Positions 3 to 7,895 of a stretch of 10,467 bases of DNA are shown here, piece after piece. Both the position numbers and the translations under genes were made by a program. Each line of letters starts with the position of its first letter. Position 1 is the stretch's first letter. This stretch comes from Lachnospiraceae bacterium. GTDB lineage: Bacteria > Bacillota > Clostridia > Lachnospirales > Lachnospiraceae. Below the pieces are notes generated by a model. It made no database searches. It saw only the letters and a list, made by a program, of their open reading frames with translations, and had not been told where the DNA came from. The stretch spans positions 9,520-19,986 of the forward strand of contig JAAUZS010000098.1 in NCBI GenBank assembly GCA_014804495.1, in the 5' to 3' direction.

Positions 3-80
3 GAACTTAGACAAAATAAACAAAAACGGTGCTCGTCGCAAGCGTAATCGCACCTTATTTTGTTTATTTTGTCTAAGTTC
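3..80. repeat. 78-bp palindromic hairpin repeat, copy 1
   Basis: This is a near-perfect inverted repeat. The left arm (3-32) begins GAACTTAGACAAAATAAAC and ends GGTGC; the right arm (50-80) begins GCACC and ends GTCTAAGTTC. The arms differ only by a small bulge near the GC-rich inner part. The 17-nt loop contains CGCAAGCG. The same element recurs at 4407-4484 with equal length and about 90% identity (8 differences counted by eye). The GGTGC/GCACC core is followed by a T-rich run on both strands, so it could also act as a bidirectional transcription terminator; that is inference. It lies upstream of coaE at the window edge, so its left neighbour is unknown. No transposase is associated, so a MITE-like or REP-like element fits best. 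Confidence 0.9.
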
Positions 81-189
81 TGGGTGTCGGAAAGAGTTCT
101 GTTTATTGGAATATGATTCAGTGTATTGAAATAGAGTTTTGAAAATGCCAAACAGATATATTGATATGGAAAGGAACATTGGTATAATA

Positions 190-798
190 ATGAGAATAAT
201 CGGGATTACCGGTGGAGTTGGGGCGGGGAAATCGGAGATTCTGGCGTATATAGAAGAACATTATAACTGTCAGGTGATTTTGGCTGATAAGGTGGCGCAT
301 CGGGTAGAGGAGCCAGGGCAGAAATGTTATGATGAACTGGTTATGCTTCTGGGGAAATATATTTTGAATCCGGATGGAAGTATAGATAAGGCGAAGATGG
401 CAGAGAAGATTTTTGCTGATAAAAATATTCTGGAAAAAGTAAACGGTATCATACATCCGGCGGTAAAAAAGTATATTATGCAGGAGATTGGGGATAGACG
501 CACGGAGGGAAAGCTGGACTTTGTTTTTGTGGAAGCGGCGCTTCTGATTGAAGACGGATACGGTCAGATAGTGGATGAACTTTGGTATATATATTCGGAA
601 ATTGATATCAGAAGAAACAGGCTGAAAGAATCAAGGGCGTATTCGGACGAGAAGATAGATAGCATTTTAAATGGGCAGCTGTCAGATGAAGAATTCAGGC
701 AGCATTGCAAAGTAGTCATTGATAATAATGGGACTATTGCAGATACCTGTAAACAGATTGATAAGAAATTGGAGGAATATCTGTGTCAGAGACAATGA
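190..798 (+). CDS. coaE: Dephospho-CoA kinase
   Basis: This enzyme catalyses the ATP-dependent 3'-phosphorylation of dephospho-CoA, the last step of coenzyme A synthesis in the cytoplasm. The 202-residue product opens with MRIIGITGGVGAGKS, the usual CoaE N-terminus with its Walker A P-loop at residues 8-15. It also shows the family landmarks ADKVAHRVEEPG after the P-loop, IIHPAV near mid-protein, a VEAALLIE stretch where many relatives have a D-PLLFE motif, and a conserved Q in NGQLSDEEF. The reading frame is open back to 139, but ATG 190 is chosen because it matches the family start and follows GGAAAGGA at 168-175 (spacing 14, rather long). An upstream in-frame ATG at 166 has no ribosome site. 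The gene's end overlaps the next start by 16 bases, so translational coupling with the FtsA-like gene is likely. Length is normal for the family (about 200). Confidence 0.95.
   Translation: MRIIGITGGVGAGKSEILAYIEEHYNCQVILADKVAHRVEEPGQKCYDELVMLLGKYILNPDGSIDKAKMAEKIFADKNILEKVNGIIHPAVKKYIMQEIGDRRTEGKLDFVFVEAALLIEDGYGQIVDELWYIYSEIDIRRNRLKESRAYSDEKIDSILNGQLSDEEFRQHCKVVIDNNGTIADTCKQIDKKLEEYLCQRQ
771..775 (+). promoter_or_regulatory. Shine-Dalgarno site deciding a GTG start inside coaE
   Basis: GGAGG lies 7 nt before GTG 783, an ideal distance. The in-frame ATG at 795, which would give a textbook ATGA overlap with the coaE stop, is 19 nt away, too far for this site. The FtsA-like protein therefore most likely starts at GTG 783, with the signal and start both buried in the end of coaE. 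Confidence 0.75.
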
Positions 799-3071
799 AA
801 TTACCGGGTCAATTAGTATTTGGTCTGGATATTGGAACGAGAAGTATTGTAGGAACGGTAGGATATCGAACAGGAGAACATTTCCATGTTGTGGCACAAT
901 GCATAAGGGAACATGAAACACGCGCCATGCTGGACGGGCAGATTCATGACATTCATAAGGTAGGAACTACGATCAGCGAAGTGAAGCGCAATCTGGAAGA
1001 AAAGACCGGCAGGAACTTTACAGACGTATGTATTGCTGCAGCCGGACGTGTGCTGCGTACTATGACGACAAATGTGGAGTATGAGTTTCCGGCTGATAAA
1101 GAAGTAAATGGCGAGGATATATATGCTCTTGATTCTATGGGTGTAGAAAAGGCATATGAGGAATTCTTAAAAACCGATAATACTGAAATGAAATTCTATT
1201 GTGTCGGATATTCTGTAGTGAGATACTATTTGAATCATTACCCGATTGGAAATCTGGAAGGACATAAGGCGAAGCACATAGGAGCGGATGTCATTGCAAC
1301 ATTTCTTCCGGATGATGTGGTAGACGGATTATATAAAGCGGTGGGGCTCGCAGGGCTTGAAGTTGCGAATCTGACGCTTGAGCCTATTGCAGCGATTCAG
1401 GTAGCCATACCCGAGATGTATCGCATGTTAAATATTGCCTTGGTCGATGTGGGCGCGGGTACGTCTGATATTTCTATTACAAATGACGGAAGCATTATTG
1501 CTTACGGTATGATTCCTATTGCAGGCGACGCGCTGACAGAGGTAATTGCCAAGCATTGTCTGGTTGATTTTAAGACCGCAGAGCAAATCAAACGCGAAGC
1601 CGGAGAAAAAGAAACAATTGAATATAAAGATATTATGGGACTTTCCCAGACTATTTCCAGAGAGAAGGTACTGGAAGTAGCTGCTCCTGTCATCAAGGAT
1701 ATGACCAAGCAGGTTGCTGATAAGATTAAGGAGTTAAACGGTAATAAGTCTGTCAGTGCGGCGTTTGTGGTAGGCGGCGGCGGAAAACTGCCGGGATATA
1801 CGGATGAACTGGCTTCGCAGCTTAATATTCAGCATGAAAGGGTTGCGGTGCGCGGTGAGGAAGTTATGCTAAACATAGTGTTCCATGAGGAGGATGCAAG
1901 GAGAGATTCCCTGATGGTAACACCTATTGGAATCTGCCTTAGTTTCTATGAACAGAGTAATAATTTTATCTTTGTATACTTCAATGATCAGAGGATTAAG
2001 CTTTATGATAATAATAAACTTGCAGTTGTAGATGCCGCGATGCAGGCGGAATTTGCGAATTCCGGACTTTTCCCGAAACGTGGAAAGGAACTGAATTATT
2101 TCGTTAATGGCAAGCCGCGTATTACAAGAGGCTCTTTAGGAGAAGCCGCCGTAATCATGGTAAATGGGCAGGAGGCCGATATTTATACTCCTATTCATGC
2201 CAATGACCAGATTAAGGTAGTGGAATCGACTGCAGGAGAGCCGGCAGCTTTAGACATTGACAAGCTTCCGGAATATGGCGCAGCCTTGTGGGTAGAGGTC
2301 AATGAAAAGAAAGTGGAACTGCCTGTGTTTGCTATGGTAAACGGTCACTTGCAGTCGGGTTTTTATGGTATCAAAGAAAATGACTCGATTGAGTTTTTGA
2401 ATTATTATACAGTCAGACAGATTGCAGAGTTCATGGATGTAATCATCAATCAGGATATGAATATTTATGTGAATAATAAACTGGCGGATATGGATACCAA
2501 GGTTTATGAGAATTTCTCTGTTATCTGGACAATGGAAGAACTGCAGCTGTCAGACAGGGATATATATGGAAGCGGGGCACCTGACACTTATGCCAATCTG
2601 CCGGAAGATGACGGAAGCTATGTGAAGAGTGAGCCGCGAAAAGAAGAGAAGAATTTGTTTACGGAAGAGAACAGTATGCTTAATGCCGGAACCGGAATGG
2701 AATCAGAAGGTGAAGGCGCTCAGGAAGCGAATACGGACCCGGTAAAAACGGATGCAAATGCAATAAAGACGAATGCAGATACAGTTACGGATGTATCAGG
2801 AGCAAATGAAAGTAAATCTGAGGGAACTGACAATGAGACTGAAAACAGTAAGTATAATATTCCCAGAAGCATACAGGTTACGGTTAATGGAGAGCAGATT
2901 CGTCTGGAGGGTAAGACAGAGTATATATTTGTAGACGTATTTGATTACATAGACTTTGACTTGTCAGTACCGCAGGGAAGCGGCATTGCAACGAAGTTAA
3001 ACGAGAAGGATGCGCAGTATATGGAACCGATTCACAGCGGCGATGTGATAAAAATTTATTGGAAAGACTGA
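783..3071 (+). CDS. FtsA-like actin-fold ATPase with long C-terminal extension
   Basis: This is a 762-residue member of the FtsA/PilM/MreB actin-like superfamily (COG0849 type). FtsA proper tethers the FtsZ ring to the membrane and is about 420 residues, so this is nearly twice as long. Visible motifs are phosphate-1 GLDIGTRSIVG (14-24), an SHS2/1C-like segment around 80-160 beginning VCIAAAGRVLR, phosphate-2 DVGAGTSD (222-229) and the adenosine motif VGGGG (330-334). The ATPase core ends near 380. The rest (about 380-762) holds several beta-rich stretches with a VNG turn (441-443, 519-521, 701-703) and two similar ends, YTPIHANDQIKVV (468-480) and MEPIHSGDVIKIY (747-759). A low-complexity Asp/Glu/Thr/Asn linker covers roughly 605-690. 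No C-terminal amphipathic membrane helix like that of FtsA is evident, as the protein ends IKIYWKD. It is probably cytoplasmic and linked to cell division or envelope work, but the true role is unknown. It sits between coaE and walJ in one transcription unit. Confidence 0.85.
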   Translation: MSETMKLPGQLVFGLDIGTRSIVGTVGYRTGEHFHVVAQCIREHETRAMLDGQIHDIHKVGTTISEVKRNLEEKTGRNFTDVCIAAAGRVLRTMTTNVEYEFPADKEVNGEDIYALDSMGVEKAYEEFLKTDNTEMKFYCVGYSVVRYYLNHYPIGNLEGHKAKHIGADVIATFLPDDVVDGLYKAVGLAGLEVANLTLEPIAAIQVAIPEMYRMLNIALVDVGAGTSDISITNDGSIIAYGMIPIAGDALTEVIAKHCLVDFKTAEQIKREAGEKETIEYKDIMGLSQTISREKVLEVAAPVIKDMTKQVADKIKELNGNKSVSAAFVVGGGGKLPGYTDELASQLNIQHERVAVRGEEVMLNIVFHEEDARRDSLMVTPIGICLSFYEQSNNFIFVYFNDQRIKLYDNNKLAVVDAAMQAEFANSGLFPKRGKELNYFVNGKPRITRGSLGEAAVIMVNGQEADIYTPIHANDQIKVVESTAGEPAALDIDKLPEYGAALWVEVNEKKVELPVFAMVNGHLQSGFYGIKENDSIEFLNYYTVRQIAEFMDVIINQDMNIYVNNKLADMDTKVYENFSVIWTMEELQLSDRDIYGSGAPDTYANLPEDDGSYVKSEPRKEEKNLFTEENSMLNAGTGMESEGEGAQEANTDPVKTDANAIKTNADTVTDVSGANESKSEGTDNETENSKYNIPRSIQVTVNGEQIRLEGKTEYIFVDVFDYIDFDLSVPQGSGIATKLNEKDAQYMEPIHSGDVIKIYWKD

Positions 3072-3078
3072 GATACTT

Positions 3079-3876
3079 ATGAGATTATGCAGTATAGCAA
3101 GCGGCAGCAGCGGTAATTGTATTTATGCAGGTTCTGATGCAACGCACCTTTTGATTGATGCAGGCATCAGTTGTAAGCGTATTGAAGAGGGGATTTCTAC
3201 ACTTGGTGTAAAAATATCGGAATTGGACGCTATATTTATTACCCATGAGCATGCAGACCACATAAACGGTTTAGGAGTTATAGCAAGAAAATATGGAATT
3301 CCCATTTACGGAACGGCAGGAACGATACAGGAGATAAAGAAGACAGCTTCTTTGGGGAATATAGACGATTCCCTTTTTCACTGTATCAGGGCAGATGAAA
3401 AATGCATAGTAAAGGATATGACTCTGTATCCTATGCGAACTTCTCATGATGCTGCCGAGCCGGTAGCATACAGAATCAGCCATGATAAAAAGAAGATGGG
3501 CATTATTACTGATTTAGGATGTTATAATGATTATACAGTTGCCTGTCTTAAAGATTTGGACGTATTGTATCTGGAAGCAAATCATGATGTAAATATGCTT
3601 CAGGTCGGGCCATATCCGTATTTCCTGAAACAGCGGATATTAGGCGACAGAGGGCATCTGTCCAACGAGACATCGGGCAAACTTCTCAGCAGACTGTTGA
3701 ATGACCATTTGCAGGCTGTTGTGTTAGGGCATCTGAGTAAGGAAAATAATATGCCGGAGCTTGCTTATGAGGCGGTAAAATTGGAAATTATGATGTCGGA
3801 AACAGGATATAGGGAAGATGACTTCCCTATTTATGTTGCAAAGAGGAATGAAGTATCAGAGATGATTGAGATATAA
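3079..3876 (+). CDS. walJ: Metallo-beta-lactamase-fold nuclease, WalJ/YycJ family
   Basis: The 265-residue protein shows the metal-binding signature THEHADH (H56, H58, D60, H61), a further histidine in SHDAAEP (H123), aspartate D145 in TDLG, and H218 in LGHLSKENN. The stretch LEANHD (165-170) followed by GPYPYFLKQRILGDRGHLSN (177-196) is the hallmark of the YycJ/WalJ group. Known relatives are reported to be DNA exonucleases, linked to mismatch repair in Bacillus; in B. subtilis the gene sits in the walRK two-component operon. Here it is detached from any walRK genes and lies 7 bp after the FtsA-like gene, so the two are probably co-transcribed. A GGAAAG stretch at the end of the upstream gene can serve as ribosome site. 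The large palindrome begins 4 bp after the stop and may mark the end of the transcription unit. Confidence 0.9.
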   Translation: MRLCSIASGSSGNCIYAGSDATHLLIDAGISCKRIEEGISTLGVKISELDAIFITHEHADHINGLGVIARKYGIPIYGTAGTIQEIKKTASLGNIDDSLFHCIRADEKCIVKDMTLYPMRTSHDAAEPVAYRISHDKKKMGIITDLGCYNDYTVACLKDLDVLYLEANHDVNMLQVGPYPYFLKQRILGDRGHLSNETSGKLLSRLLNDHLQAVVLGHLSKENNMPELAYEAVKLEIMMSETGYREDDFPIYVAKRNEVSEMIEI

Positions 3877-3880
3877 TAGG

Positions 3881-4078
3881 TAATTGCAGAGCTCACTTTT
3901 TGAAACAGTCCGTTGTACAATATATACAAATCAACGCAGGCACGCTTGCGCTGCATTGCCGCTCGTAGCGGTAGTAAGCTCGAAAAGACCTCGCTAACTA
4001 CCGACGGCGGCAGAGCACCTGCTTTTGTTTTGTATATATTGTACAACTACATTTTGGAAATAGAGAGTTTTGCAATTA
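3881..4078. repeat. ~198-bp imperfect palindrome filling the walJ-ACT gap
   Basis: Outer arms TAATTGCA (3881-3888) and TGCAATTA (4071-4078) are exact complements. In register with them, GTTGTACAATATATACAAA (3912-3930) pairs perfectly over 19 bp with 4029-4047. Further in, GCAGG pairs with CCTGC, TGCCGC (3957-3962) with GCGGCA (4007-4012), and GGTAGT (3970-3975) with ACTACC (3997-4002), leaving a small apex. Several outer mismatches would be G-U pairs in plus-strand RNA. It starts 4 bp after the walJ stop and ends 37 bp before the ACT gene. It differs in sequence from the 78-bp hairpin repeat, apart from an inverted CGCTTGCG/CGCAAGCG octamer, and only one copy is present here. A MITE-like element or a structured untranslated region are both possible. 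Confidence 0.8.
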
Positions 4079-4082
4079 TATA
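4055..4082 (+). promoter_or_regulatory. Possible promoter of the ACT gene, overlapping the palindrome's right arm
   Basis: TTGGAA (4055-4060) and TATATA (4077-4082) are 16 bp apart, a sigma-A-like arrangement. The predicted transcription start near 4089 would leave a leader of about 27 nt that still includes the AAAGGAA ribosome site at 4098-4104. The -35 box and most of the -10 box lie inside the palindrome's right arm, so the element itself may supply the promoter. The A/T-rich setting makes chance matches common. Confidence 0.4.
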
Positions 4083-4115
4083 TGAGATATAGTACAGAAA
4101 GGAATAGGTTTATTT

Positions 4116-4388
4116 ATGAAGAAAACAATTATTACAGTGGTAGGAAAAGATACGGTTGGTATTATTGCGAAAGTGTGTACATATTTAGCGGATAACGGAA
4201 TTAATATTCTGGATATTTCACAGACGATAGTACAGGATTATTTTAATATGATGATGATTGTAGATATGAATAAGGCAAGTAAGGATTTTGGTGTTATAGT
4301 AGAAGAACTGGCTAAGCTCGGTGAGAGTATCGGGGTTATTATTAAGTGTCAGAAGGAAGAGATTTTTAATCAGATGCATAGGATATAG
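4116..4388 (+). CDS. ACT domain protein, UPF0237 family
   Basis: This is a 90-residue single-domain ACT protein. The N-terminus KKTIITVVGKDTVGIIAKV (2-20) has the beta strand followed by the GKD-xx-GI loop typical of ligand-binding ACT domains, and ADNGINILDISQTI (25-38) is the usual helix-to-strand continuation. Length and sequence fit UPF0237, related to the regulatory ACT domains of GcvR. ACT domains bind amino acids or other small ligands and regulate partner proteins. The ligand here is unknown. The family is often encoded directly before a DUF711/UPF0210 gene, as it is here, so the two products probably act together. ATG 4116 follows AAAGGAA by 11 nt. Unlike compact versions of this pair, a 78-bp hairpin and a promoter-like sequence lie between the two genes. 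Confidence 0.9.
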   Translation: MKKTIITVVGKDTVGIIAKVCTYLADNGINILDISQTIVQDYFNMMMIVDMNKASKDFGVIVEELAKLGESIGVIIKCQKEEIFNQMHRI

Positions 4389-4406
4389 AATGTTATTGCA
4401 TGTGAC

Positions 4407-4484
4407 GAACTTATCCAAAATAAACAAAAACGGTGCTCACCGCAAGCGAAATCGCACCTTATTTTGTTCATTTTGGATAAGTTC
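4407..4484. repeat. 78-bp palindromic hairpin repeat, copy 2
   Basis: This is the second copy of the element at 3-80, same orientation and same length. Its left arm is 4407-4436 (GAACTTATCC...GGTGC) and its right arm 4454-4484 (GCACC...GGATAAGTTC). Compared with copy 1, GA at stem positions 8-9 has become TC, and the opposing TC at 70-71 has become GA, so both pairs are kept. The remaining changes are three in the loop and one in the right arm. It begins 18 bp after the ACT stop and ends 67 bp before the DUF711 start. The GC core plus T-rich tail could terminate transcription after the ACT gene. Confidence 0.9.
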
Positions 4485-4490
4485 TGGATA

Positions 4491-4520
4491 TTGAAATAGA
4501 ACTTCATGATTGCTTAATAT
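4491..4520 (+). promoter_or_regulatory. Probable promoter of the DUF711 gene
   Basis: TTGAAA (4491-4496) and TAATAT (4515-4520) are separated by 18 bp. Transcription would begin near 4527, just ahead of the AGAGGAG ribosome site (4533-4539) that serves ATG 4552. The -35 box starts only 7 bp beyond the hairpin repeat and belongs to a TTGAAATAGA motif also found downstream of copy 1. If active, it gives the DUF711 gene its own transcript. Confidence 0.55.
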
Positions 4521-5977: not shown

Positions 5978-6394
5978 ATGAAAGATGCGGAAAAAACAGT
6001 CGGAAAAATGATTGATAAATCAAGTACAAGCTTTATTTCATATGTGGATGATGAAGGATACCCTATCACAAAGGCTATGTTGAAGCCGAGAGAGCGGGAA
6101 GGAATAAAAACTATTTATTTTTCTACGAACACATCTTCTAATAAGGTGAAATATTTTAAGCAGAATAATAAAGCAAGCGTTTATTTTGTTGACAGGCGTT
6201 TCTTCCGTGGTGTCAGTCTGGTTGGAACCGTAGAAGTATTAGAAACACAGGAAGCAAAAGAAAGAATTTGGCAAAAAGGAGATACTCTTTATTATAAAGA
6301 AGGGGTCACAGATCCGGATTATTGTGTTTTAAAATTTACGGCGGAAAAAGGGAGATATTATAGTAATTTTAGATCTGAAGATTTTGAAATCTGA
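5978..6394 (+). CDS. Pyridoxamine 5'-phosphate oxidase-like split-barrel protein
   Basis: The 138-residue product has the opening of small FMN-binding split-barrel proteins: a short helix, then FISYVDDEGYPITKAML (19-35), where the strand and the DEDGYP-type turn are typical, followed by IKTIYFSTNTSSNKVKYF (43-60) and KASVYFVDRRFFRGVSLVG (66-84). Members of this group (PNPOx-like, general-stress type) bind flavins or haem and are seldom true PdxH enzymes, so the substrate is unknown. ATG 5978 is preferred: AGAAGGAG (5957-5964) precedes it by 13 nt. The in-frame ATG 5966 is only 1 nt from that site, and ATG 5945 has no nearby site. It is followed after 13 bp by the lipoprotein gene, so they probably share a transcript. 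Coding DNA is more A/T-rich than that of the upstream housekeeping genes. Confidence 0.8.
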   Translation: MKDAEKTVGKMIDKSSTSFISYVDDEGYPITKAMLKPREREGIKTIYFSTNTSSNKVKYFKQNNKASVYFVDRRFFRGVSLVGTVEVLETQEAKERIWQKGDTLYYKEGVTDPDYCVLKFTAEKGRYYSNFRSEDFEI

Positions 6395-6407
6395 AGGGCA
6401 GGTTATT

Positions 6408-7895
6408 ATGATAAAAAAATCAAAATTCTTATTATGCGAACTATTATTGATTATATTGGTTTTATCAGGATGCGCTTCGGTAAGTGAAAATGATGCTGTA
6501 GAATCTGGTGACAGTGATAATTATGCACAGATAGAAGAAGAGGAGCAGAATGAATTAGCAGGTCAGGGAGCGACTGAAAACCAGGAAGTAGCAAAACAGG
6601 AAATGCTGGATAGTCAGGAAGCAGAAGAACAGGAAGTGTCAGATAACCAGAATGCAGTTGAACAGGATGTGGAAGACAATCAGGATGCCGCAGAACAGGA
6701 AGATTGGAACGAACTCTCAGATGAGGAGTTAAACAATTTTACGGATTTTTTCCAAAGTTATGAAAATTATGGTTTTTTGCTGTCGGATTATACAACTCCC
6801 ATAGATGTTGATTTAAATGAAGTTTTTTATTGTGGTGCCGGAATTGCTGCCCATGTATTGTCGGACGATGTGGAGGCAGCATACGAACAAGAAACCGGTT
6901 GGACGATAGAATTGGATGTTGAATGTCTTACAACCAGACAGATAGATGATCTTTTGATAGAGAAGACAGGATATTCGTTAGAGGAAATGAATAAAACTCT
7001 TGAGTGGGTTTATCTGGAACAATATGATTCTTATATCGGTCAGCATGGAGACACAAACTATATTCCTTTTGTCTGTATCAGCGGGAAAAGAATAGAAGAA
7101 GATGTTTTTGAACTTAAATATCAAAGCGTTTATGAATTCCAAGGAGAATTGATATGTGGTGATTATCACGGTGTTGTTACATTAAGAAAAAACGGTGAAA
7201 ATTATCTATTTATATCCAATCAGATGCTTGATGGTTCTGCTTTATCAGGTCTTTCCTGCAAAGAGGTAAGTCAGCTTAAATTTTTTGCGGAAAATAAAGA
7301 TTCTTGGAATATAAGTAAATATACACCTAGGGCATTCTACTATGCTGTATTTGATTTAGACAATGACGGAAGATTAGAACTTATTACAAGTGCAATTTCC
7401 GGTACAGGACAGTATTCGGAAAATCATTTTTACCGTAGAAATGATGATGAAATCGAGGAACTGCCACAGAAATACTCAGGAAAGAAGTTAGAGTCAGACT
7501 CAGAACTGGATTTTACTCTTTTTGACTATAAATATGCTTATACAAATGGAAAAGTGACATATTATCCTGCTTCTGATTTTATCAGAGACGGATTTCAATG
7601 GTCATCTTCTGCTGACGGAGCGTATTATCTCAAAGACGGAACGGTGTATATTGATATATATAGGAGTGACTATACTTTATACAAAGATGATGGTGAAACT
7701 ACCTGTTATGATGCTGATGGAAATGAAATTACGCAGGAAGCATGGGAAAAACTTGAGGAAAATTATTATGCAGGAATGGATGCCATAACTTATCCTATCT
7801 GTTGGGTGTATATAAGTCCCTCTGAGCTTAAGCAGGACACATATCAGAAAATATTCAGAGAGCTGGTAGATAATTATAAAAAAGGAGTAGAGTAG
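6408..7895 (+). CDS. Secreted lipoprotein with 11-residue repeat and EF-hand-like loop
   Basis: This 495-residue protein is probably anchored on the outer face of the membrane. It has a lysine-rich N-terminus, a hydrophobic core and the lipobox LSGC with the lipidated cysteine at residue 22. Next comes an acidic, Gln-rich stalk (about 25-105) that includes four 11-residue repeats (57-100). The body starts with ELSDEELNNFTDFF, an opening I recognise from uncharacterised clostridial lipoproteins. Later, DLDNDGRLE (316-324) matches a calcium-binding DxDxDG loop as in EF-hand or VCBS-like repeats. The C-terminal third is rich in Tyr and Asp. No catalytic motif was found and the function is unknown. 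ATG 6408 follows AAGGG by 9 nt; earlier in-frame codons would spoil the signal peptide. It ends 14 bp from the stop of the convergent MATE gene. Confidence 0.8.
   Translation: MIKKSKFLLCELLLIILVLSGCASVSENDAVESGDSDNYAQIEEEEQNELAGQGATENQEVAKQEMLDSQEAEEQEVSDNQNAVEQDVEDNQDAAEQEDWNELSDEELNNFTDFFQSYENYGFLLSDYTTPIDVDLNEVFYCGAGIAAHVLSDDVEAAYEQETGWTIELDVECLTTRQIDDLLIEKTGYSLEEMNKTLEWVYLEQYDSYIGQHGDTNYIPFVCISGKRIEEDVFELKYQSVYEFQGELICGDYHGVVTLRKNGENYLFISNQMLDGSALSGLSCKEVSQLKFFAENKDSWNISKYTPRAFYYAVFDLDNDGRLELITSAISGTGQYSENHFYRRNDDEIEELPQKYSGKKLESDSELDFTLFDYKYAYTNGKVTYYPASDFIRDGFQWSSSADGAYYLKDGTVYIDIYRSDYTLYKDDGETTCYDADGNEITQEAWEKLEENYYAGMDAITYPICWVYISPSELKQDTYQKIFRELVDNYKKGVE
6576..6707 (+). repeat. 33-bp in-frame minisatellite, four units
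   Basis: Four consecutive 33-bp units encode ENQEVAKQEML, DSQEAEEQEVS, DNQNAVEQDVE and DNQDAAEQEDW. The [ED]-[NS]-Q at positions 1-3 and E/K-Q-[ED] at positions 7-9 are kept while DNA and other residues have drifted. It forms the acidic stalk between the lipid anchor and the folded part of the lipoprotein. Unit number may vary between strains. Confidence 0.85.

What the first reader, a model, noticed from the sequence alone, without database searches (positions are those of the whole stretch)
3..4484. Two hairpin copies with paired compensatory changes
The 78-bp palindromes at 3-80 and 4407-4484 are the same length and about 90% identical. Of eight differences, four are two base-pair swaps at stem positions 8/71 (G-C to T-A) and 9/70 (A-T to C-G), three are in the loop and only one disturbs a stem pair. 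That pattern is expected if the folded form, as RNA or as a cruciform recognised by a protein, is under selection. A family of dispersed hairpins without its own transposase could be a MITE, a REP-like unit moved by a distant transposase, or a bidirectional terminator family.
Basis: partly seen in the sequence, partly recalled or inferred. Interest (0 to 1): 0.7.

Follow-up and report, generated by a model that had tools for sequence, protein, structure and literature searches.

The report
Dispersed hairpins whose arms co-evolve
Gut bacteria of one genus carry up to about a hundred copies of a small mobile hairpin, and the matched changes in its two arms look as if one arm is copied onto the other in the DNA, rather than selection rescuing a folded RNA one base at a time.

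Summary
In detail: two 78-bp palindromes, 70/78 identical, two swapped stem pairs. They belong to a family: at least 107 copies in this genome, 47, 93, 69 and 21 in four relatives; 8 of 61 genomes searched carry it, all of one genus, apparently Lachnospiraceae. Where ends survive, the hairpin lies in a ~142-bp MITE-like element with 17-bp terminal repeats and 8-12-bp target duplications (26 of 44 elements of all kinds; shuffled mean 1.6). Window copy 2 has an empty site in the sister species. Arm ends, inner arm and loop are conserved; arm positions 8-14 vary but stay symmetric. At 19 and 7 orthologous sites, 12.8% and 14.3% of those pairs changed symmetrically, near the flank divergence (15%); a pairing-selection model gives at most 0.5%, arm-to-arm copying 9-12%. 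G.T and A.C mismatches are equally common (54:60). Best reading: a MITE-borne hairpin whose core is conserved and mostly co-oriented with transcription (139:45) and whose arms are homogenised by template switching. The mechanism is inferred; transposase and core function are unidentified.

The parts
3..80 (+). Hairpin copy 1 (conserved core of the element); outer arms 3-25 and 58-80, inner hairpin 28-54; lies before coaE
   Evidence: coaE. Orthologue at the same place in G011 (C400:4686-4767)
10..16 (+). Hypervariable but symmetric segment (arm positions 8-14) of copy 1, left arm; partner 67-73
   Evidence: per-position counts; orthologue counts
67..73 (+). Hypervariable segment of copy 1, right arm
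4407..4484 (+). Hairpin copy 2; outer arms 4407-4429 and 4462-4484 (one mismatch); between an ACT-domain gene and a DUF711 gene
   Evidence: Absent at the orthologous place in G011
4386..4520 (+). Approximate extent of the eroded element that carries copy 2 (ends not recognisable; inferred from where similarity to G011 stops)
   Evidence: inference
3877..4082 (.). Second MITE-like element of another interior kind (206 bp, 'type B') with the same kind of ends, flanked by TGAGATATA at 3867-3875 and 4083-4091
   Evidence: absent in G011

Best explanation
The hairpins are the conserved cores of old, non-autonomous (MITE-like) elements that spread through the intergenic DNA of several species of one genus, with target duplications of up to 12 bp (shown). 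After insertion the outer ends erode while the arm ends, inner arm and loop change much more slowly than the flanks, so the core is probably still used (shown as rates, read as purifying selection). The middle of each arm is free to change in sequence; when one arm mutates, the two arms are made identical again by copying one from the other while the strand is folded back during replication or repair, i.e. quasipalindrome template switching (inferred). About half of such events would spread the new base and half erase it, so each pair behaves like one neutrally evolving site and the changes look compensatory. The core, mostly co-oriented with and just downstream of genes, may act in the transcript as a 3'-end element, such as a terminator-like or end-protecting hairpin (inferred, weakly supported).
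For: Element: terminal repeats and target duplications, 26 of 44 (15 of the 27 that carry this core), shuffled control mean 1.57, maximum 8; empty sites in G011 for window copy 2 and the type-B element. Conservation: at 19 G000/G011 and 7 G021/G007 orthologous sites, per-site divergence 0.030 and 0.040 in the conserved arm, 0.073 and 0.044 in loop plus inner stem, 0.152 and 0.156 in adjacent flanks. Arm copying: symmetric changes in 17 of 133 and 7 of 49 middle pairs against about 0.8% by chance; a model with the flank rate and one parameter fitted to the mismatch frequency predicts 0.093 and 0.124 for arm copying, 0.003 and 0.002 for pairing selection. Compensated length changes at two sites (C10_19413/C224_2372, C125_10418/C332_9170). 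Of 104 copies of the main loop type, the asymmetric junction is kept in 70, both arms carry the left form in 24, the right form in 8, one is swapped, one is a chimaera, none half-converted (tallied by hand). Three of 107 copies have the same end type on both sides and one has both ends swapped. G.T 54 and A.C 60 over four genomes. Orientation: 139 with and 45 against transcription, pooled p = 2e-12.
Against: The copying model over-predicts one-sided differences in the first species pair (0.151 predicted, 0.079 seen on 18 sites) and under-predicts symmetric ones (0.093 against 0.135). Seventy of 104 copies keep the asymmetric junction, which copying alone should erase, so selection or recency must protect it. 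Copies were found with a model that rewards pairing, and the main mismatch counts use only copies with at least 17 of 23 paired positions (91 of 98 in G000), so badly unpaired copies are under-counted. Ectopic conversion from other copies is not excluded at about half of the changed sites. At one site (C118_6587/C54_12247) the core changed more than its flanks (flanks 2/120), as conversion from another copy would give. The orientation bias is not significant alone in G011 (p 0.25) or G036 (p 0.096). The terminator scan marks both window copies on the minus strand only; its loop limit of 8 excludes the full hairpin. No single copying event was observed.
Confidence: 0.6

Rival explanations
1. 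Selection on the folded form (an RNA hairpin, a terminator working on both strands, or a DNA cruciform bound by a protein) keeps the middle of the arms paired; the changes are ordinary two-step compensatory pairs.
For: 97.4% of cells paired and strong covariation in 28 copies; core slower than flanks; orientation with transcription.
Against: A point-mutation model with pairing selection gives at most 0.5% symmetric pairs at any strength, against 12.8% and 14.3% seen; it needs a local mutation rate raised 10-15 fold. G.T does not exceed A.C, against selection on one RNA strand. The model ignores compensation within polymorphic populations.
Confidence: 0.2
2. Ectopic gene conversion or replacement between the roughly 100 copies in a genome swaps whole cores, bringing both arms at once.
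For: Core changed more than flanks at C118_6587/C54_12247; chimaeric copy C172_7927; shared loop variants among copies.
Against: In 6 of 12 changed orthologue pairs neither arm sequence (positions 8-14) occurs in any other copy examined in its genome (for G007 74 of 93 copies were examined). Compensated indels in otherwise unique arms.
Confidence: 0.12
3. Symmetry is set at each transposition, through a folded single-strand intermediate copied from one arm, as proposed for hairpin-type mobile DNA.
For: Every species has its own loop but the same symmetric variable middle.
Against: Symmetric changes also occur in copies that stayed in place in two species pairs; the ends have terminal repeats and target duplications, as cut-and-paste type elements do.
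Confidence: 0.04
4. Assembly artefact of short-read bins makes arms look symmetric.
For: All genomes used are drafts; some copies contain N.
Against: Flanks are collinear at the orthologous sites, and the pattern repeats in five assemblies.
Confidence: 0.03

Closest known systems
REPINs (inverted REP doublets, moved by RAYT Y1 transposases)
   Same: High-copy intergenic hairpins with conserved ends and a less conserved, paired middle; [quoted passage not shown]
   Different: Here terminal inverted repeats and target duplications; no RAYT found: the only Y1 protein of G000 is IS200-type and not beside a copy, and G007, with 93 copies, has no PF01797 match.
Bacterial MITEs and small repeats such as RUP, BOX and SPRITE of pneumococcus
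   Same: Non-autonomous, terminal repeats, target duplications, intergenic; SPRITE is terminator-like and lies near gene 3' ends (PMC3049150, passages seen).
   Different: A different sequence family; here a long palindromic core with hypervariable but symmetric arm middles. Partner transposase unknown.
Quasipalindrome template-switch mutation
   Same: Arm homogenisation and multi-base compensatory change in one event (PMC8794818 and PMC8604942, abstracts and outlines seen; E. coli work PMC7202029, listing only).
   Different: Those concern RNA genes, yeast coding DNA or reporter hot spots; here a dispersed bacterial repeat family with replicate orthologous sites and a rate test.

Membership tests
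MITE (non-autonomous element) | Terminal inverted repeats | tested here: met
   TAGNNAATTGCGAAACT at both ends; 97 matches with up to 2 mismatches in G000 against 13 for the reversed control pattern
MITE (non-autonomous element) | Target site duplication | tested here: met
MITE (non-autonomous element) | Empty sites in relatives | tested here: met
   G011 lacks window copy 2 and the type-B element
MITE (non-autonomous element) | Autonomous partner with the same ends | tested here: inconclusive
   PF01609 matches in relatives without these ends; 20 stretches around exact ends show short elements or run off contigs
REPIN/REP | RAYT gene flanked by the repeats | tested here: not met
   in draft genomes
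Intrinsic terminator | G+C-rich hairpin followed by a T tract | tested here: inconclusive
   Inner GGTGC/GCACC with T-rich arm by eye; the scan reports both copies on the minus strand only and cannot model the 17-base loop
Intrinsic terminator | Transcripts end there | not testable with these tools
   needs term-seq
Known Rfam family | Match at the gathering score | tested here: not met
   none at gathering in L005, L026, L030; in the window only three weak sub-threshold matches
Template-switch homogenisation | Single-event multi-base arm copying in both directions | tested here: inconclusive
   End products and rates fit; single events not observed

The most novel reading that the evidence does not exclude
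In these bacteria the two arms of dispersed hairpins undergo arm-to-arm copying some 20-40 times faster per pair than point mutation (fitted), so that textbook covariation arises near the neutral rate without selection for pairing; compensatory changes cited for REPIN-like and other intergenic hairpins would then need re-reading.
Probability: 0.45. Interest if true: 0.75.

Novelty: new variant of a known kind. Interest (0 to 1): 0.57.

Why it matters
Covariation is often taken as the best evidence for a functional fold. This family is a natural experiment: hundreds of copies in five genomes, replicate orthologous sites and flanks as a clock, in which a rate comparison separates pairing selection from DNA-level arm copying. 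It is also a repeat family that I did not find described: the listings (an open-licence library) show no paper on it, and Rfam gave no match at threshold.

Tried and rejected
Selection on one RNA strand: not supported, G.T = A.C (an earlier cruder count gave 50:54 and 22:21). IS4-type partner (PF01609): G000 has no match; matches in relatives lack the ends. RAYT partner: not met. Ectopic conversion as sole cause: no donor found in 6 of 12 pairs. Rfam: nothing at threshold.

Rows dropped or partial. One search gave 32 flank links; 23 were taken as site pairs by reading the list. One search left out five of these 23 (one chimaera, three whose adjacent flanks do not align, one whose ends do not fit the layout) and one of 8 G021/G007 pairs. 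On checking I found that one further pair with one matching flank (C60_2355/C362_6558) had been overlooked; one search adds it (19 sites: symmetric 17 of 133 instead of 17 of 126). One search was run with the 18-site figures. Four of the 19 sites have only one matching flank. Two pairs with indels were counted for arm positions 1-16 only. One search stopped with an error after 13 of 19 pairs and was replaced. One search used 91 of 98, 39 of 39, 30 of 30 and 30 of 30 copies offered, and only 30 of 93 (G007) and 30 of 69 (G036) had been offered; 74 of 93 G007 copies entered. One search left out 7 of 107. Single-genome model searches scored 150 of about 2,900-3,600 first-look candidates, so copy numbers are floors. 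Orientation counts pool species that share some sites and rest on simple ORF calls; 22 of 279 cores overlapped an ORF call and 12 lay at edges.

Full report
OBSERVATION. The two palindromes are as described: 70/78 identical, differences at positions 8, 9, 33, 34, 43, 63, 70, 71; two pair swaps, three loop changes, one stem mismatch. Both fold far better than shuffles.

A FAMILY. A DNA search with copy 1 gave 40 scored places on the matching strand; all 40 recur in the model search. A covariance model from 28 copies (R1) gave 107 distinct places in the same genome, 3.75 Mb in 182 contigs. Of 61 genomes searched (own, 36 of the same genus, 24 of other families of the order), 8 have matches, all in the genus (stricter filters). 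Single-genome searches gave 47 distinct places in G011, 93 in G007, 69 in G036 and 21 in G021; G004, G006 and G035 have 8, 3 and 3 matches. That the window's host is a Lachnospiraceae is inferred from this.

IT SITS IN A MITE-LIKE ELEMENT. Many copies continue on both sides into TAGNNAATTGCGAAACT...GTCAC and TGGTTATTGAAATAG...AGTTTTGCAATTNNCTA. Elements bounded by such ends, about 140-150 bp with this core and about 50-227 bp with other interiors, are flanked by direct repeats: 26 of 44, control mean 1.57, maximum 8 in 200 shuffles; 27 of the 44 carry this core and 15 of those have the repeat. The window holds one of the other kind at 3877-4082. At the orthologous place G011 lacks this element and window copy 2, while copy 1 has an orthologue. 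The transposase was not found: PF01609 gives no match in G000, and matches in relatives lack the ends; 22 of 41 genomes of the genus have exact ends, and 20 stretches around such ends show short elements or run off contig ends.

WHAT IS CONSERVED. In G000, G011, G007 and G036 the arm ends (positions 1-7), inner arm (15-23) and loop are the more conserved parts, while positions 8-14 vary, position 9 through all four bases in each of G000, G011 and G007, mostly with the matching partner: 1992 of 2079 pairs in 91 G000 copies and 678 of 690 in 30 G007 copies are Watson-Crick. In G036 positions 5-7 also vary. Loops and inner stems differ between species but stay largely paired.

EVOLUTION IN PLACE. 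Flank matches identify orthologous insertions. At 19 sites (G000/G011; 18) and 7 (G021/G007) positions 8-14 diverged by 0.195 and 0.194 per site, adjacent flanks by 0.152 and 0.156, the conserved arm by 0.030 and 0.040, loop and inner stem by 0.073 and 0.044. So ends, inner arm and loop look constrained and the middle does not; yet 17 of 133 and 7 of 49 middle pairs changed symmetrically, where independent change would give under 1%. One-sided changes: 10 of 133 (plus 4 two-sided unpaired) and 5 of 49. Two sites show compensated length changes. A 16-state model with the flank rate and one parameter fitted to the mismatch frequency predicts symmetric fractions of 0.093 and 0.124 for arm copying and 0.003 and 0.002 for pairing selection (18-site figures). 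Selection matches only with a local mutation rate raised 10-15 fold. Arm copying is not a perfect fit: in the first comparison it predicts 0.151 one-sided, 0.079 was seen.

FURTHER SIGNS OF COPYING. The junction of outer arm and inner hairpin is normally asymmetric (AAAAACGG against CCTTATTTT). Of 104 copies of the main loop type in G000 and G011, 70 keep it (two of them with one further change), 24 have the left form on both arms, 8 the right form, 1 is swapped, 1 is a chimaera, none is half-converted (tallied by hand). Three of 107 copies have one end type on both sides and one has both ends swapped, as arm copying and spacer inversion would give. That 70 keep the asymmetry shows that something protects it.

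WHICH LEVEL. If the gene-sense RNA were selected, G.U should exceed A.C. It does not: 29:34, 9:16, 6:5, 10:5 in G000, G011, G007, G036. This leaves DNA-level processes or selection acting equally on both strands.

FUNCTION OF THE CORE. Of 279 cores in five genomes, 139 read with and 45 against two same-direction neighbours, 35 lie between divergent and 26 between convergent genes, 22 overlap an ORF call, 12 are at edges; per-genome p values run from 7.5e-7 (G007) and 5e-5 (G000) to 0.25 (G011). The median distance after the upstream stop codon is 10-33 nt. In the window, copy 1 precedes coaE and copy 2 lies between an ACT-domain and a DUF711 gene. A transcript 3'-end role is my best guess, unproven; the terminator scan marks both window copies only on the minus strand.

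LITERATURE. REPINs show the same style of compensated middle (PMC3116915; passages and first part of section 10). Template switching as a source of compensatory change is described for RNA genes (PMC8794818) and yeast inverted repeats (PMC8604942), abstracts and outlines seen. SPRITE repeats resemble terminators near gene 3' ends (PMC3049150, passages). None of the listings seen names this family.

Noticed in passing
window 3877-4082; also L002, L003, L134, L159, L205, L207 and L383-L391: A second kind of MITE-like element, about 200-225 bp, shares the ends but has another long palindrome; exact ends occur in 22 of 41 genomes of the genus, more than carry the hairpin described here.
   Followed up: partly
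L188 (G000:C172:7927-8009): A chimaera: left half of this hairpin joined to an arm of the other element kind.
   Followed up: no
G000:C9:10274, C47:4226, C85:11066, C138:6681; related arm in C173:1856: Four copies share the same small palindrome (CAGATAATTTACGAAGTAAATTTTCTG) inserted in the right arm; a fifth has a like sequence in its left arm.
   Followed up: no
G064, G017, G015, G003, G001, contig starts: Exact terminal repeats lie within 100 bases of contig ends in several assemblies, which may mark unresolved multi-copy elements, perhaps the missing autonomous one.
   Followed up: partly
window 6384-7892: A 503-aa open frame with a lipoprotein-like start (my reading) and no Pfam match at 1e-5.
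   Followed up: no
G000:C50:20090-20446: The only Y1 transposase match in the genome; NCBIfam calls it IS200/IS605 type.
   Followed up: yes
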